Notes under the pieces: generated by a model | The model's database searches: none | What the model saw: the letters and a program-made list of their open reading frames with translations, nothing else | What the model was told of the DNA's origin: nothing | In this document: piece after piece, positions 4,825 through 63,031 of the stretch | Position numbering within the stretch: the first letter of the stretch is position 1 | How the letters are laid out: each line of letters begins with the position of its first letter | Program-made: the position numbers and the translations under genes | From: Pseudomonadaceae bacterium SI-3 | Lineage (GTDB): Bacteria; Pseudomonadota; Gammaproteobacteria; Pseudomonadales; Pseudomonadaceae | Length of the DNA: 64,000 nt | Direction of reading: 5' to 3' | NCBI GenBank assembly: GCA_004010935.1 | Contig: CP026511.1 | Coordinates: 2,046,001 to 2,110,000, forward strand

Positions 4825-5012
4825 GACTGACTCCTTGTTCTGAGAGGGGCATGATTGTGGCGCCAGTAGCGCGAGATGTGAACAGCCAATAGGCGATGAT
4901 TTGGTCATATACATCGGCGTTATGGGCGTTATGCCACCACGCAGAGCCTCAAAATTCGCGAAACGAGCGGGGCCATCAGCTAGACTTTCGCCCTTTTTAA
5001 AGGAGATGCCCC

Positions 5013-56856: not shown

Positions 56857-57852
56857 ATGCCAGATTCGAAGTTGGTCGATCCGTTCGGCCGACGCATCAC
56901 CTACCTGAGATTGTCGGTGACCGACCGGTGCGATTTTCGTTGCACCTATTGCATGAGCGAGGACATGGTCTTCGCACCGCGCGCTCAGATCCTCACGCTA
57001 GAAGAGCTCTATGCGGTGGCTGATGCGTTTATCAGTCTGGGCGTCAAGCGTATCCGTGTGACCGGTGGCGAGCCGCTGGTGCGCAAGGGATTGCCGAGCC
57101 TGCTGAGTCGTCTGGGTGCCCGTGAAGAGCTGGAAGATCTGTCGATCACGACTAACGGCTCGCAACTGTCGACCCTCGCGCTCGTGCTTCGTGATGCTGG
57201 CGTCAAGCGTCTGAATATCAGTCTGGATTCGCTCAAGCGTGAACGTTTCGCTGAACTCACGCGCCGCGACATGCTTGCGCAGGTGATCGCTGGCATCGAT
57301 GCTGCTCGCAGTGCCGGATTCGACCGAATCAAGCTCAACAGCGTGATCCAGAAAGGCCGTAACGACGACGAAGTCCTGGATCTGGTGAATTTCGCCATCG
57401 AGCGCGGGCTGGATATCAGCTTTATCGAGGAAATGCCGCTGGGCAACGTATCCAGCCATGAGCGCGAGATTACTTTCTGCTCCAGCGAGGAAGTGCGCGA
57501 GCGTATCGAAGCCGGCCACCAGCTGGTACGAAGCAGCCACACCACCGGAGGCCCGTCACGCTATTGGCAAGTCGCCGGAAGCGATACCCAGGTGGGCTTC
57601 ATTTCGCCTCATAGCAATAACTTCTGTGGCAGTTGCAACCGGGTACGCGTCACCGCCGAAGGCAAGCTGGTGCTCTGCCTCGGTCACGAAGGCGCGCTGG
57701 ATCTCAAGACCTTGATGCGTCGCTACCCCGGCGACAGTGAGCGGCTGCGCCAGGCGTTGGTCGATGCGCTGCAGCTCAAGCCTGAGAAACATGAATTCCG
57801 CACGGACGAGCAGGTCCAGGTGGTGCGCTTCATGAGCATGACGGGCGGTTGA
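56857..57852 (+). CDS. moaA: GTP 3',8-cyclase, molybdenum cofactor biosynthesis
   Basis: A 331-residue radical-SAM enzyme, the first step of molybdopterin synthesis. The N-terminal cluster motif is CDFRCTYCM, the second cluster is FCGSCNRVRVTAEGKLVLC and the C-terminus ends MSMTGG with the conserved Gly-Gly. Intact and full length. Confidence 0.97.
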   Translation: MPDSKLVDPFGRRITYLRLSVTDRCDFRCTYCMSEDMVFAPRAQILTLEELYAVADAFISLGVKRIRVTGGEPLVRKGLPSLLSRLGAREELEDLSITTNGSQLSTLALVLRDAGVKRLNISLDSLKRERFAELTRRDMLAQVIAGIDAARSAGFDRIKLNSVIQKGRNDDEVLDLVNFAIERGLDISFIEEMPLGNVSSHEREITFCSSEEVRERIEAGHQLVRSSHTTGGPSRYWQVAGSDTQVGFISPHSNNFCGSCNRVRVTAEGKLVLCLGHEGALDLKTLMRRYPGDSERLRQALVDALQLKPEKHEFRTDEQVQVVRFMSMTGG

Positions 57853-57877
57853 GGCAGCCGGCATCGCAGACCGACAG

Positions 57878-58229
57878 TAGGGTGGGCTTCAGCCCACCTG
57901 ATAGGGCTAGCATGGGCCCGACGGCTTCTGCTTCAGCCCACGTGATACATCGTTATCGGTGGGCTGAAGCCCACCCCACGTCGCGCTTGATGCCCGGACT
58001 GCTCGTAGGGTGGATGACGCTTTTTTCATCCACCGTGGCTCATCACTCATTCCTGCCGACCCGCATTGAATTGGCTGTAAGGCGGGTGGAGCAACGCTCC
58101 GCTTCAGGCCGCCTGATATGTGATCACTGGTGGGCTGAAGCCCACCCTTGTATCTCGACTACCACGCTATGTTGGGGTGATAGTTCCCGACTGATCATCG
58201 GGGGAAGGTCAGAAAGCCGTATCCACCCT
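57878..58229. repeat. Cluster of REP palindromes
   Basis: At least four palindromes in about 350 bp. GTAGGGTGGGCTTCAGCCCACC starts at 57878; GGTGGGCTGAAGCCCACC lies at 57958-57975 and 58129-58146. An imperfect hairpin GTAGGGTGGATGAC...CATCCACC lies at 58005-58034. Degenerate copies sit near 57920-57942 and 58081-58113, and a split copy ends in ATCCACCCT at 58221-58229. These match Pseudomonas REP sequences; no gene lies in the stretch. Confidence 0.9.
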
Positions 58230-58385
58230 TAGGCTTTGAGCCTGCGACGTAGATAGCGCTGCGGCCTTCCATACTCACTCTTACAGCTCGAACGGTATCC
58301 AGAGCCCGCCTCCGGCGAGAGCTCGCATCAGCAAGGTAGAGCTGAGTGAAGTATTGATCTTTCTGAACCAGCAGGAGGAGTTCTT
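58230..58385 (+). ncRNA. Candidate bridge RNA in the IS110 left end
   Basis: IS110-group elements encode a guide RNA in this position. Folding by eye: a small 5' hairpin AGGCT-TTG-AGCCT (58231-58243), then a long stem pairing ATACTCACT (58271-58279) and CAGCTC (58284-58289) with GAGCTG and AGTGAAGTAT (58339-58354), capped by an inner stem (GAGC/GCTC and CGCC/GGCG). The internal loop has strands 58290-58301 and 58325-58338. The 5' strand contains ACGGTATC (58292-58299), identical to the right end of the element just before its core (59366-59373), as a donor guide should be. GACGTAG (58246-58252) is complementary to CTACGTC at the target side (59373-59379). Not tested. Confidence 0.5.
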
Positions 58386-59357
58386 ATGCCCAGCGTCATC
58401 GGCATCGATATCGCCAAACGCACGTTCGACATCGCCACCCAGCAGCCCAATGGCAAGTACCGCACCAAGGCCAAATTGCCTAACGAGGTGGCCGGTTTCG
58501 AAGCGCTCCAGCAGTGGCTGCTCAAGCACGCCAATGCCCAAGCCTGGATCGTGATGGAAGCGACCGGCGCTTACCATGAAGCGCTCGCGACCTGGCTTCA
58601 CGATAAAGGCTATCAGGTCTGCGTGCTCAATCCTGCACAGGTCGCCTATTACGCTCGAAGCCAGCTCCAGCGCGTAAAGACCGACAAAGTCGACGCCAAA
58701 CTCATCGCTGAGTATGGCGAGCGGCACCAGAGCGATCTGCGGGCCTGGCAGCCTGAGCCTCCCGCCGTCCGGCGCTTGAAAGCATTAGTGCGGCGCTTGG
58801 AGGATCTGCAGGAGATCCAACAAATGGAACGCAACCGCTTGGATCTGGCCGACGCTAGTGTGCAGGCTTCAATCTACTCAGTGCTGCACCATGTCGAGCG
58901 GCAGATCGGAGAGACGCTCCGTGCGATCCGAGACCACATCGATGATGACCCGGACCTGCGCAACAAACGCGACCTGCTGACCAGCATTGATGGCATCGGC
59001 GATCGTTCCGCAGCCCTGTTGCTGGCTGAGCTGGGCGATCCGTTACGCTTCGCCAGCTCACGCGCGATCACCGCTTATGCCGGGCTGAACCCCCGCCTTC
59101 AGGAGTCTGGCTCCTACAAAGGCCAGACGCGCATATCCCGCACAGGATCGTCTCGCTTGAGGGCTGGGCTCTACATGCCGGCGGTCTGCTCGCTCACACA
59201 CAACCCGGCCATTAGTGCTCTACGCGAGCGTCTGAGTGCAAAAGGAAAATCCGGAAAACAAATCGTCTGTGCAGCGATGCGCAAGCTGCTGCACATCGCC
59301 TATGGGGTACTTAAATCGGGCCAGCGTTTCGACCCTCAACTGGCCCTTGCTCGGTAA
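58386..59357 (+). CDS. IS110-family transposase (recombinase)
   Basis: A 323-residue DEDD-type transposase. The N-terminal RuvC-like domain has acidic residues D8 (GIDIAKR), E58 (VMEATGAY) and D100/D103 (KTDKVDAKL). The C-terminal Transposase_20 domain has YAGLNPRLQESGSYKG, where S241 is the likely catalytic serine, followed by RISRTGSSRLRAGLY. A coiled-coil segment links them (about 120-170). Length is normal and all catalytic residues are present, so the element may be active. A GGAGGAG precedes the ATG. Confidence 0.94.
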   Translation: MPSVIGIDIAKRTFDIATQQPNGKYRTKAKLPNEVAGFEALQQWLLKHANAQAWIVMEATGAYHEALATWLHDKGYQVCVLNPAQVAYYARSQLQRVKTDKVDAKLIAEYGERHQSDLRAWQPEPPAVRRLKALVRRLEDLQEIQQMERNRLDLADASVQASIYSVLHHVERQIGETLRAIRDHIDDDPDLRNKRDLLTSIDGIGDRSAALLLAELGDPLRFASSRAITAYAGLNPRLQESGSYKGQTRISRTGSSRLRAGLYMPAVCSLTHNPAISALRERLSAKGKSGKQIVCAAMRKLLHIAYGVLKSGQRFDPQLALAR

Positions 59358-59542
59358 TGGGGAAGACGGTATCTACGTCCAGCCTGCAAGGTCGAGATTG
59401 CTGCACTGCTACGCAGGATGCGGTAAAAGCGGCGTGATAGACTCCGCGGCTTTATGCCAGCACCCACCCGACTCCAGGACTTCCGATGTTCACGGCGACT
59501 CTGCTTGTTCATCCCTACGCTGACTGCCACGGATAGGCCTCA

Positions 59543-62500
59543 ATGCGTCTGAAAAGCATCAAGCTTGCCGGCTTCAAATCCTTCGTCGATCCCACCACGG
59601 TCAGCTTTCCCAGCAACATGGCGGCAGTGGTCGGCCCCAATGGTTGCGGAAAGTCCAACATCATCGATGCCGTGCGCTGGGTGATGGGCGAAAGCTCGGC
59701 GAAGAACCTGCGCGGCGAGTCGATGACCGATGTCATCTTCAACGGCTCGAACACCCGCAAGCCAGTGACCCAGGCCAGCATCGAACTGATCTTCGATAAC
59801 TCGGACGGTACGTTGCTGGGCGAATACGCGGCGTTCACAGAAATCTCTATCCGCCGGCGGGTCACGCGTGACGCTCAGAACACTTATTTTCTCAACGGTG
59901 TGAAATGTCGTCGGCGCGACATCACCGACATCTTCCTGGGTACTGGTCTGGGGCCACGCAGCTATTCGATCATCGAGCAAGGCATGATCTCCAAGCTGAT
60001 CGAGGCCAAGCCGGAAGACCTGCGTAACTTCATCGAAGAGGCGGCCGGCATCTCCAAATACAAGGAGCGCCGCCGCGAAACCGAAACCCGTATCCGCCGT
60101 ACTCATGAAAACCTGGCTCGCCTGACCGATCTGCGGGAAGAGCTGGAACGCCAGCTGGAGCGCTTGCATCGTCAGGCGCAGTCGGCGGAGAAATATCAGG
60201 AGTACAAAGCCGAGGAGCGCCAGCTGAAGGCCCAGCTGTCGGCGTTGCGCTGGCAGGCTTTGAACGAACAGGTCGGCCAACGCGAGCAAGTGATCGGCGA
60301 TCAGGAGGTCAGTTTCGAGGCGTTAATAGCCGAACAGCGCAACGCCGACGCCAGCATCGAGCGCTTGCGCGACGGCCACCATGACCTGTCGGAGCGCTTC
60401 AACCTGGTCCAGGGCCGCTTCTATTCCGTCGGCGGCGATATCGCCCGGGTCGAGCAGAGCATTCAGCATGGTCAACAGCGCTTGCGCCAGCTGCAAGATG
60501 ATCTGCGCGAAGCCGAGCGAGCCCGGCTGGAAACTGAATCCCACCTGGGGCATGACCGCAACGTGCTCGCCACGCTTGGCGAAGAGCTGGCCATGCTCGA
60601 GCCGGAGCAGGAAATCGCAGGCGCGACGGCCGAAGAATCTGCCGCCCAGCTCGAAGAAGCCGAGGCGGCAATGCAGCTCTGGCAGGAACAGTGGGAGCGG
60701 TTTAATCAGCAGAGCGCCGAGCCGCGCCGGGCGGCGGAAGTCCAGCAGTCGCGCATCCAGCAACTGGAACAAAGCCTAGAGCGCTTGGCAGAACGTCAGC
60801 GGCGCCTTGAGGACGAGCGCGCCTCGCTCGCCGGCGATCCAGAGGACGCCGCGGTGGCCGAGATAAGTGAGCAGCTGGCCATTGGCGAGCTGAATGTGGA
60901 AGAGCTATCCGCGGCGCAAGAACAAACCGAGCAACAGCTTGAGCTGCTCCGCGAGCAACTGCAGCAGGCGAGTCGCACCGAGCAGGAAGCGCTAGGCCAG
61001 TTGCAGCGTATGGGTGGCCGCATCGCTTCGCTTGAGGCCTTGCAGCAGGCTGCCATGGACCCGGGCAAAGGCGTTTCCGATTGGCTGCATGTGCGAGGGC
61101 TCGACCAGCGACCGCGTCTGGCCGAAGGGCTTCGCGTAGAGCCGGGATGGGAGCTTGCGGTCGAGACCGTGCTGGGCGCAGATCTGCAAGCCGTGCTGCT
61201 GGACAGCTTCGACGAATTGGACCTGAACGGCTTCGAGCAGGGCGATCTGCGTCTGGTCAGCGCCACGCAGCGTGCCGGCGTGATCAGCGGAAGCCTGTTG
61301 GATAAGGTCGAGTCCGCCACGGATCTCTCGCCTTGGCTCGGCCGGGTGCGCACTGTGGACGACCTCGATCAGGCGTTGGCTGCGCGAGGCTCGCTTGGTG
61401 ATGGCGACAGTCTGATCAGTCGTGATGGCTACTGGGTTGGTCGACATTTTCTAAGAATCAGACGGGCTGGAGAGGCCGAGTCCGGAGTGCTGGCGCGCGG
61501 CCAGGAACTGGCGCGGTTGCAAGCCGAACGTGATGAGTGCGAGGCGAGTCTTGAGCAGCTGACGGAGCAACTCGGCCAGCTGCGCGAGGCACAACGCGAA
61601 CAAGAGGAATGCCGGGAACAGCAGCGCCGTCAGCATCAGGATCTGTCTCGTCAGCAAGGCGAATTGAACGCTCGCCTGTCGGCTAGCCAGGCCAGGCTGG
61701 AACAGTTGAGCTTGCGCTGCCGCCGGCTGGACGAAGAGCTCGTCGAGCTTTCCGCGCAGCGCGCGTTGGAAACCGAGCAACTGGGCGAGTCGCGCCTGCA
61801 TCTGCAAGATGCGCTCGACGCGATGGCCGCCGATACCGAGCAGCGCGAGTCGCTGTTGGCAAGCCGTGACGGCATTCGCGAGCAGTTGGACCGGGTTCGC
61901 CAGGAAGCGCGACAGCACAAGGATCACGCGCATCAACTGGCCGTCCGAATCGGTTCGCTAAGAGCCCAGCATGATTCGATCCGCCAAGCGCTTGAGCGTC
62001 TTGAGCAGCAATTCGAGCGTGCGGTCGAACGCCGCGAACAACTGAGCTTGAATCTGGAAGAGGGCGAGGCGCCACTCGAAGAGCTGCGCATCAAGCTCGA
62101 GGAGCTGCTGGAGCGGCGCATGGGCGTTGAAGACGAGCTCAAGCTGGCACGCTTGGCCCTCGAAGATGCTGATCGCGAATTGCGAGATGCCGAGAAGCGC
62201 CGAACCCAGGCCGAGCAGCAGGCGCAGTTGCTGCGTGGCCAGCTTGAGCAGCAGCGGATGGACTGGCAGGCCCTTAGCGTTCGGCGTAAGACGGTACAGG
62301 ACCAGTTGCATGAGGAGGGCTTCGATCTGCATGGCGTACTGGCGACGCTGCCCGCCGAGGCCGGCGAGGCCGAGTGGGAAGTCGAGCTCGAGCGTCTGGG
62401 TGCCCGCATCCAGCGCCTCGGGCCGATCAACCTCGCGGCGATCGATGAATATCAGCAGCAATCGGAACGTAAACGCTACCTCGATGCACAGAACGACGAC

Positions 62501-63031
62501 CTTGCCGAAGCGCTCGATACGCTGGAAAACGTTATTCGCAAGATCGACAAGGAAACGCGAAATCGCTTCAAGGAGACGTTTGATCAGATCAACAGTGGTC
62601 TGCAGGCGCTTTTCCCAAAGGTTTTCGGCGGCGGCAACGCTTATCTGGAACTTACCGGGGAAGATTTACTCGATACCGGGGTGGCGATCATGGCGCGACC
62701 ACCCGGGAAGAAGAACAGCACCATCCACCTCCTGTCTGGCGGTGAGAAGGCACTGACCGCGCTGGCATTGGTGTTTGCGATCTTTCAGCTCAACCCGGCA
62801 CCGTTTTGCATGCTGGACGAAGTGGACGCGCCTTTGGACGACGCTAACGTCGGGCGCTATGCGCGTCTGGTCAAGGAGATGTCGGAAAAGGTGCAGTTCA
62901 TTTACATCACGCACAACAAGATCGCGATGGAAATGGCCGACCAGCTGATGGGAGTCACCATGCACGAGCCGGGTTGTTCACGGCTGGTCGCGGTTGATGT
63001 GGAGCAGGCGGTGGCGCTCGTGGAGGCTTGA
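59543..63031 (+). CDS. smc: Chromosome partition protein SMC
   Basis: An 1162-residue SMC protein. Walker A VGPNGCGKSN in the N-terminal head, a long coiled coil (about residues 170-490 and 650-970) with a hinge near 500-630, and a C-terminal head with signature LLSGGEKALTALALVFA and Walker B FCMLDEVDAPLDD. It is an ATP-driven loop extruder acting in chromosome organisation. Its promoter must lie in the about 168 bp left by the IS insertion, or be provided by the element. Upstream of zipA as in other pseudomonads. Confidence 0.96.
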   Translation: MRLKSIKLAGFKSFVDPTTVSFPSNMAAVVGPNGCGKSNIIDAVRWVMGESSAKNLRGESMTDVIFNGSNTRKPVTQASIELIFDNSDGTLLGEYAAFTEISIRRRVTRDAQNTYFLNGVKCRRRDITDIFLGTGLGPRSYSIIEQGMISKLIEAKPEDLRNFIEEAAGISKYKERRRETETRIRRTHENLARLTDLREELERQLERLHRQAQSAEKYQEYKAEERQLKAQLSALRWQALNEQVGQREQVIGDQEVSFEALIAEQRNADASIERLRDGHHDLSERFNLVQGRFYSVGGDIARVEQSIQHGQQRLRQLQDDLREAERARLETESHLGHDRNVLATLGEELAMLEPEQEIAGATAEESAAQLEEAEAAMQLWQEQWERFNQQSAEPRRAAEVQQSRIQQLEQSLERLAERQRRLEDERASLAGDPEDAAVAEISEQLAIGELNVEELSAAQEQTEQQLELLREQLQQASRTEQEALGQLQRMGGRIASLEALQQAAMDPGKGVSDWLHVRGLDQRPRLAEGLRVEPGWELAVETVLGADLQAVLLDSFDELDLNGFEQGDLRLVSATQRAGVISGSLLDKVESATDLSPWLGRVRTVDDLDQALAARGSLGDGDSLISRDGYWVGRHFLRIRRAGEAESGVLARGQELARLQAERDECEASLEQLTEQLGQLREAQREQEECREQQRRQHQDLSRQQGELNARLSASQARLEQLSLRCRRLDEELVELSAQRALETEQLGESRLHLQDALDAMAADTEQRESLLASRDGIREQLDRVRQEARQHKDHAHQLAVRIGSLRAQHDSIRQALERLEQQFERAVERREQLSLNLEEGEAPLEELRIKLEELLERRMGVEDELKLARLALEDADRELRDAEKRRTQAEQQAQLLRGQLEQQRMDWQALSVRRKTVQDQLHEEGFDLHGVLATLPAEAGEAEWEVELERLGARIQRLGPINLAAIDEYQQQSERKRYLDAQNDDLAEALDTLENVIRKIDKETRNRFKETFDQINSGLQALFPKVFGGGNAYLELTGEDLLDTGVAIMARPPGKKNSTIHLLSGGEKALTALALVFAIFQLNPAPFCMLDEVDAPLDDANVGRYARLVKEMSEKVQFIYITHNKIAMEMADQLMGVTMHEPGCSRLVAVDVEQAVALVEA

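What the first reader, a model, noticed from the sequence alone, without database searches (positions are those of the whole stretch)
58230..58385. Candidate bridge RNA with guide-like loop strands
Seen: a stem with a large internal loop, whose 5' strand holds ACGGTATC, exactly the 8 nt at the element's other end before the core (59366-59373). A 7-nt segment GACGTAG is complementary to CTACGTC spanning core and right target. Established: IS110 bridge RNAs have two loops, one guiding to donor and one to target DNA. Inference: this non-coding end encodes such an RNA with REP specificity. Weak point: the second donor strand match and the left target guide were not found clearly.
Basis: partly seen in the sequence, partly recalled or inferred. 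Interest (0 to 1): 0.72.

Follow-up and report, generated by a model that had tools for sequence, protein, structure and literature searches.

The report
Bridge RNA of an IS110 insertion element
A jumping DNA element in a Stutzerimonas-like bacterium carries a small guide-RNA gene whose two loops match the element's own ends and the repeated genomic site where it lands; across relatives the guide and the landing site change together, so it is a clear natural example of a recently discovered system rather than a new one.

Summary
The finding holds. Window 58147-59374 is an IS110-group insertion sequence whose recombinase is a relative of IS621 (233 bits, five catalytic residues aligned). Its left end encodes a bridge RNA at about 58172-58348, wider at the 5' side than reported. 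All four guides are present at nearly IS621 spacing. Ends were fixed by six copies and by empty sites with one CT. The fold is supported by 20 pairs with compensatory change. The left target guide tracks the target: 254 of 308 positions against a shuffled maximum of 200. The left donor guide equals the donor in 91 of 91 copies whose right end was found, including a change shared by both in two genomes. No promoter was recognised; transcription could not be tested. A new member of a known kind, with clean natural retargeting.

The parts
58140..58146 (+). left target (non-core part), GCCCACC, one arm of a REP-like palindrome
   Evidence: junction alignment of six copies; guide match 7 of 9 incl. 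core at this copy
58147..58148 (+). left CT core
   Evidence: empty sites of other copies hold a single CT
58147..58153 (+). right donor, CTTGTAT (start of left end, with core)
   Evidence: nearly invariant in relatives
58186..58202 (+). 5' stem-loop of the bridge RNA
   Evidence: helix 1 (100% of cells paired); RNA 5' end put at about 58172 by IS621 numbering (inference)
58203..58270 (+). target-binding loop with its closing stem
   Evidence: helices 2-4; fold
58221..58229 (+). left target guide ATCCACCCT
   Evidence: tracks the left target across relatives
58231..58243 (+). inner hairpin of the target-binding loop
   Evidence: helix 4
58249..58252 (+). right target guide GTAG (at this copy complementarity runs 58246-58252)
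   Evidence: pairs with CTAC in 85-87 of 87 copies per position; position +3 in 60 of 87; extension weak
58253..58254 (+). putative handshake guide AT, complementary to donor positions 6-7
   Evidence: position by analogy with IS621 (PMC11208158, passages); A invariant, T nearly so; not tested by covariation
58276..58348 (+). donor-binding loop with its stem
   Evidence: helices 5-7
58292..58299 (+). left donor guide ACGGTATC
   Evidence: equal to left donor in 91 of 91 copies with a right end found, two letter types
58302..58324 (+). inner hairpin of the donor-binding loop
   Evidence: helix 7
58327..58335 (+). right donor guide AT-[CA]-GCAAG, nine RNA bases for seven donor bases
   Evidence: same gapped pairing as IS621; letters; one relative (L060) with compensatory change
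58386..59357 (+). IS110-family recombinase, 323 aa
   Evidence: PF01548, PF02371; NF033542 240.5 bits; IS621 8wt6 233.5 bits, ISCro4 9t56 229 bits
59366..59373 (+). left donor ACGGTATC (short right end, includes first core base)
59373..59374 (+). right CT core
59375..59376 (+). right target AC (complementarity at this copy runs to 59379)

Best explanation
Window 58147-59374 is an IS110-group insertion sequence. Its left end is transcribed into a bridge RNA of about 175 nt with a 5' stem-loop, a target-binding loop and a donor-binding loop. The recombinase (58386-59357) binds this RNA. [quoted passage not shown] The recombinase then exchanges strands at the shared CT, leaving the element flanked by CT inside a REP. 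Shown here: anatomy, exact ends, fold covariation, left-target and left-donor guide tracking. Inferred from IS621: transcription, RNA binding, circle intermediate, strand choice and catalysis.
For: Recombinase family and catalytic residues D8, E58, D100, D103, S241 aligned to IS621 D11, E60, D102, D105, S241 (IS621 residues from passages of PMC11208158). Six copies with constant ends and changing flanks. Empty sites: joined flanks of own copy L004 align over nearly their whole length, without the element, to G053 (93%), G048, G055 and G049; those of the G053 copy to G026 and, for query 148-442, to the own genome; five of these six sites read ATCCACCCTAC with one CT, the sixth (G048) ATTCACCCTAC. 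Fold: 40 pairs, 96.8% of cells paired against 28-46% when slid, 20 pairs with changes on both sides against 10.0 in shuffles, 0 of 500. LTG-LT: 95 of 98 non-core positions over 14 types from 20 relatives, 0 of 100000 shuffles as high; 254 of 308 over 44 types, 0 of 20000. LDG = LD in 91 of 91. Spacing: with LTG numbered 50-58 as in IS621, LDG is 121-128 (IS621 123-130) and CAAG of the RDG 161-164 (IS621 162-165). Natural retargeting: recombinases 97.2% identical, LTG different at 3 of 7 positions against 10 of 228 in the rest of the left end, and the target follows in 7 of 7 G095 copies.
Against: No sigma-70-like promoter in the left end and none better than 8 of 12 across the joined circle ends, although IS621 is described as rebuilding one there. 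No Rfam match. One of the five covariation measures (further pair types, 37 against 35.2, 113 of 500) is not above shuffles. This copy itself has two LTG mismatches; G169 copies match the LTG only 6-8 of 9 and FFL34 copy L041 6 of 9. Right-guide tracking at +3 to +5: 91 of 5000 shuffles as high, 242 of 5000 without G169, and nothing at +5 alone (2334 of 5000).
Confidence: 0.96

Rival explanations
1. The left end is only a structured 5' untranslated region that restrains recombinase translation, as shown for ISPpu9, and the guide-like matches are incidental.
For: The modelled RNA region ends 26 nt before the ATG; ISPpu9 tnp has a 244-nt 5'-UTR and regulatory sRNAs (PMC8450116, passages).
Against: A regulatory leader does not predict that a 9-nt stretch equals the flanking genomic target and changes with it, or that an 8-nt stretch equals the far end of the element in 91 of 91 copies. 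Both roles could coexist.
Confidence: 0.02
2. The recombinase reads REP DNA directly; the LTG-like stretch is a REP fragment captured from an earlier target.
For: Many relatives target similar REP arms, so part of the LTG-LT identity is shared background (shuffle mean 163.9 of 308).
Against: Sliding by one base drops 95 matches to 30 or 41. The stretch sits in the structural place of the IS621 LTG. Recombinases 97.2% identical use different targets according to the LTG.
Confidence: 0.02
3. Refinement compatible with the best explanation: target choice is set by total pairing, so a long right-guide match pays for left-guide mismatches, and that is why the window copy landed in a two-mismatch REP arm.
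For: The window copy is the only one of six with LTG mismatches and the only one with a full 7-nt right match. G169 copies have loose LTGs and a full CTACGGG match in 8 of 9. Spearman -0.45 over 87 copies; within-element r = -0.36, p = 0.04, n = 33. Extended RTGs are described for IS621 (PMC11208160, passages).
Against: Copies of one element are not independent and the within-element effect is marginal. GCCCACCCTACG arms are abundant (57, reversed control 1), so one off-consensus landing needs no special cause.
Confidence: 0.3

Closest known systems
IS621 (E. coli; IS110 group) bridge RNA and recombinase, PDB 8wt6
   Same: Recombinase homology over query residues 4-317 with the five catalytic residues; RNA in the left end; LTG 9 nt, RTG 4 nt, LDG 8 nt, RDG with two skipped bases; CT core; REP target ending CT-AC; near-identical spacing
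   Different: Target letters (ATCCACC-CT-AC against ATCAGGC-CT-AC as printed in PMC11208160); no junction promoter recognised here
ISPpu10 and other Pseudomonas REP-targeting IS110 elements
   Same: REP insertion with 2-bp repeats (PMC1525189, passages); ISPpu10 is one of six elements with a published predicted bridge RNA (figure legend in PMC11208160)
   Different: I held no sequence known to be ISPpu10, so kinship to this element was not tested
seekRNA elements: ISEc21 (IS110) and IS1111-family members (PMC11187229)
   Same: Non-coding RNA next to the transposase gene that matches both target strands (passages)
   Different: IS1111 elements carry the RNA downstream and have subterminal inverted repeats; here it is upstream with a very short right end

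Membership tests
IS110-group bridge RNA element | DEDD RuvC plus Tnp-domain recombinase with catalytic serine | tested here: met
IS110-group bridge RNA element | long left end with the RNA, short right end | tested here: met
   237 nt from core to ATG, 15 nt from stop to core
IS110-group bridge RNA element | CT core present once in the empty site and twice after insertion | tested here: met
   six empty sites examined
IS110-group bridge RNA element | two-loop RNA fold conserved by covariation | tested here: met
IS110-group bridge RNA element | LTG complementary to bottom-strand left target, covarying | tested here: met
IS110-group bridge RNA element | RTG complementary to top-strand right target, covarying | tested here: inconclusive
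   complementary at CTAC in 85-87 of 87 copies but nearly invariant there; tracking beyond CTAC weak except G169
IS110-group bridge RNA element | LDG equal to left donor, covarying | tested here: met
   91 of 91; two letter types, the rarer in two genomes
IS110-group bridge RNA element | RDG pairing discontinuously with right donor | tested here: met
   complementarity pattern only; compensatory change in one relative (L060)
IS110-group bridge RNA element | sigma-70-like promoter rebuilt at the circle junction | tested here: inconclusive
   none found by consensus
IS110-group bridge RNA element | RNA expressed, bound by recombinase, directing recombination | not testable with these tools
   needs RNA sequencing and assays
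IS1111 group | RNA downstream of the gene in a long right end | tested here: not met
   the right end has 15 nt between stop and core

The most novel reading that the evidence does not exclude
In this Pseudomonadaceae lineage the bridge RNA works on a pairing budget: elements either keep a near-perfect 9-nt left guide with a short right guide, or relax the left guide and lengthen the right one (genome G169: CTACGGG in eight of nine copies, CTACAGG in the ninth), and a few LTG changes let almost unchanged recombinases move between REP families. The element's own guide DNA would escape attack because it lacks AC after the CT (0 of 44 genome-LTG combinations have AC there).
Probability: 0.25. Interest if true: 0.5.

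Novelty: new member of a known kind. Interest (0 to 1): 0.3.

Why it matters
It is an independent, sequence-only confirmation of bridge RNA logic in a lineage with many genomic copies and visible empty sites. Natural pairs of nearly identical recombinases with different left guides (97.2% and 98.5% identity) are ready-made material for asking how few guide changes retarget an element. The long-right-guide element of G169 may be a useful natural variant for specificity studies.

Tried and rejected
Rfam scan of 55-62 kb gave only a match far below its gathering score (mir-4873, 57874-57982), which is a REP palindrome. Promoter scans found nothing convincing in the left end or across the joined circle ends. 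The empty site of the window copy itself was not shown cleanly: in the nearest held relative (G039) the DNA between the flanking REPs is inverted, though an intact GGTGGGCTGAAGCCCACCCTAC is present; I therefore used other copies. For those I examined six matched loci; weaker full-length matches (G050, G036, G040, G012) were not read. I considered that the truncated bridge RNA matches in G031 and G009 might be RNA-only mini-elements; the two that I fetched (L210, L211) stop at contig ends, so I take them as assembly breaks; the others were not read, nor was a weak match in G034 (32.3 bits). No match in the phage collection. The plasmid search, cut at 5000 records, gave one record of 60-80% identity (Xanthomonas sacchari, 64.6%) and otherwise relatives under 60%; their left ends were not examined. 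I held no IS621 DNA, so the covariance model was not tried on it; the comparison rests on published numbering.

Rows and choices. The 20 rows of A1 were chosen by me from the loci to limit near-duplicates (L001, L008 and L009 are still close). Of 112 rows, one repeat of L060 and L039 (same contig as L155) were dropped and L201 had no recognisable left junction: 109 were used. These include two truncated tandem left ends of L132, two cut at contig ends (L210, L211) and two distant rows with uncertain junctions (L208, L209). Rows L143, L190 and L191 were read one base off in the model alignment and count as mismatches in the fixed-register figure. Only 87 of 109 had a readable right target, 91 a right end. 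Left donors were located by the motif ACGGTATCT with up to two mismatches, so more divergent donors would be missed. Loci lacking the left end were not used in the guide tests.

Full report
What is there. The window holds one IS110-family insertion sequence between a moaA gene (56857-57852; TIGR02666, 370.6 bits) and an smc gene (59543-63031; TIGR02168, 1187.8 bits). The recombinase is 58386-59357, 323 aa, with both IS110 Pfam domains, the NCBIfam model 'IS110 family RNA-guided transposase' at 240.5 bits, and PDB matches to IS621 (8wt6, 233.5 bits) and ISCro4 (9t56, 229 bits). Counting along that alignment, IS621 D11, E60, D102, D105 and S241 fall on D8, E58, D100, D103 and S241 (residue roles from passages of PMC11208158).

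Ends. The 4.84-Mb genome has six copies, this one included, 99-100% identical. Aligned on the gene, their flanks diverge just outside ...CCACC-CT|TGTATCTCGAC and GACGGTAT|CT-AC.... The joined flanks of own copy L004 align over query 1-442 or nearly so, without the element, in G053 (93%), G048, G055 and G049. The joined flanks of the G053 copy do so in G026 (10-442) and in the own genome (148-442). In five of these six the site reads ATCCACCCTAC with a single CT; G048 reads ATTCACCCTAC. So the core is CT (58147-58148 and 59373-59374), the target is ATCCACC-CT-AC and the donor is GACGGTAT-CT-TGTATC. The genome has 36 uninterrupted ATCCACCCTAC sites, 20 of them in ten close opposed pairs as expected of REP palindromes, against 0 for the reversed pattern.

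The RNA. Twenty left ends from relatives (recombinase about 60-100% identical) align over 175 columns. The fold has a 5' stem-loop, a first loop and a second loop. Forty pairs give 96.8% standard cells, against 28-46% when partners are slid by 1-3 columns; 20 pairs change on both sides, against 10.0 in shuffles, 0 of 500. One of the five measures, the number of further pair types, is not above shuffles (37 against 35.2, 113 of 500). A structure derived from the same alignment favours itself somewhat.

Guides. LTG: ATCCACCCT, 58221-58229. RTG: GTAG, 58249-58252. LDG: ACGGTATC, 58292-58299. RDG: AT, two skipped bases, GCAAG, 58327-58335, i.e. nine RNA bases for seven donor bases CTTGTAT, with G facing T as in IS621 (G161 and dT12). 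If the LTG is numbered 50-58 as in IS621, the RTG is 78-81 (IS621: 77-80), the LDG 121-128 (123-130) and the RDG ends at 164 (165).

Do guides track targets? Read by alignment column, the LTG matches the left target 9 of 9 in 17 of 20 elements, 8 of 9 in two and 7 of 9 in the window copy. Over 14 distinct types 95 of 98 non-core positions match; shuffling targets gives a mean of 55.9, a maximum of 83 and 0 of 100000 as high; shifting by one base gives 30 or 41. A covariance model built from these found bridge RNAs in 36 of 298 Pseudomonadaceae genomes at E <= 1e-6, at most nine candidates being scored per genome. I fetched 80 stretches and read guides from the model alignment. Of 112 rows, 109 were used. 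By copy, 63 of 109 match 9 of 9, 30 match 8, 9 match 7, 4 match 6 and 3 are misread in register. Targets differ widely, e.g. GCAGCGGCT (L050), GCCGCTCCT (L046), TTCGCCCCT (L155), GTACGCCCT (L179), CTCGGCTCT (L060).

Natural retargeting. L179 (genome G095, seven copies) and L040 (P. mendocina FFL34) have recombinases 97.2% identical. Their left ends differ at 3 of 7 LTG positions and 10 of 228 others. All seven G095 copies sit in the G095 target 9 of 9 and L040 in its own 9 of 9; a second FFL34 copy, L041, matches only 6 of 9. In genome G165 two elements 98.5% identical carry LTGs ATCCATCCT and GTCCACCCT; the single copy of the second is 9 of 9, the eight copies of the first are each 8 of 9.

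Right target guide. CTAC is paired in 85-87 of 87 copies per position but hardly varies. Position +3 matches in 60 of 87. At element level, shuffled guides do as well at +3, +4, +5 and all three together in 127, 314, 2334 and 91 of 5000 shuffles; together without G169 in 242 of 5000. This copy is the only one of six with left-guide mismatches and the only one with full right extension, and G169 shows loose left guides with CTACGGG paired by CCCGTAG in 8 of 9 copies. The correlation is -0.45 over all copies but r = -0.36, p = 0.04 within elements (n = 33), so I treat it as a lead. A 7-nt extended RTG is already described for IS621 (PMC11208160, passages).

Donor guides. LDG equals the left donor in 91 of 91 copies whose right end was found: 85 ACGGTATC and 6 ATGGTATC, the latter in G172 and G187; the base just outside differs (A against G or C) in 91 of 91. 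The RDG shows one compensatory case, L060, with donor CTTGTGT and guide AC-TC-ACAAG.

What is not shown. No promoter consensus is convincing. No transcript, RNA binding, circle or recombination was observed. Steps from transcription to strand exchange are inferred from homology and anatomy.

Known or new. Bridge RNAs in left ends of IS110 elements were described in 2024 (PMC11208160, PMC11208158; passages seen), with a parallel seekRNA description (PMC11187229; passages). REP targeting by Pseudomonas IS110 elements was described in 2006 (PMC1525189; passages), and ISPpu10 is among the elements with a published predicted bridge RNA. Of the papers listed, seen as titles and abstract openings, none is presented as being about this element; ISfinder and paper supplements were not available, so whether the element already has a name is unknown. 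I rate it a new member of a known kind.

Noticed in passing
57876-58146: A cluster of REP-like palindromes between moaA and the element; one exact guide target (ATCCACCCTAC, minus strand, 58005-58015) lies about 130 bp upstream of the insertion and was not used.
   Followed up: partly
L213 positions 1326-1495 (genome G039): In the nearest held relative the DNA between the two flanking REPs is inverted relative to the window and no element is present there, which suggests inversion between opposed REPs.
   Followed up: partly
   Followed up: partly
L165-L173 (genome G169): Nine copies of a related element with a loose left guide match (6-8 of 9) and a long right guide CCCGTAG fully matching CTACGGG in 8 of 9.
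   Followed up: partly
44 genome-LTG combinations: The two bases after the guide-plus-CT in the element's own DNA are never AC, so the bridge RNA gene is not a complete target for itself; hairpin constraints may explain this equally, and the misregistered rows L143, L190 and L191 were read one base off.
   Followed up: no
57874-57982: Sub-threshold Rfam match to mir-4873 (25.1 bits, gathering 100) overlies a REP palindrome and is not evidence of a microRNA.
   Followed up: partly
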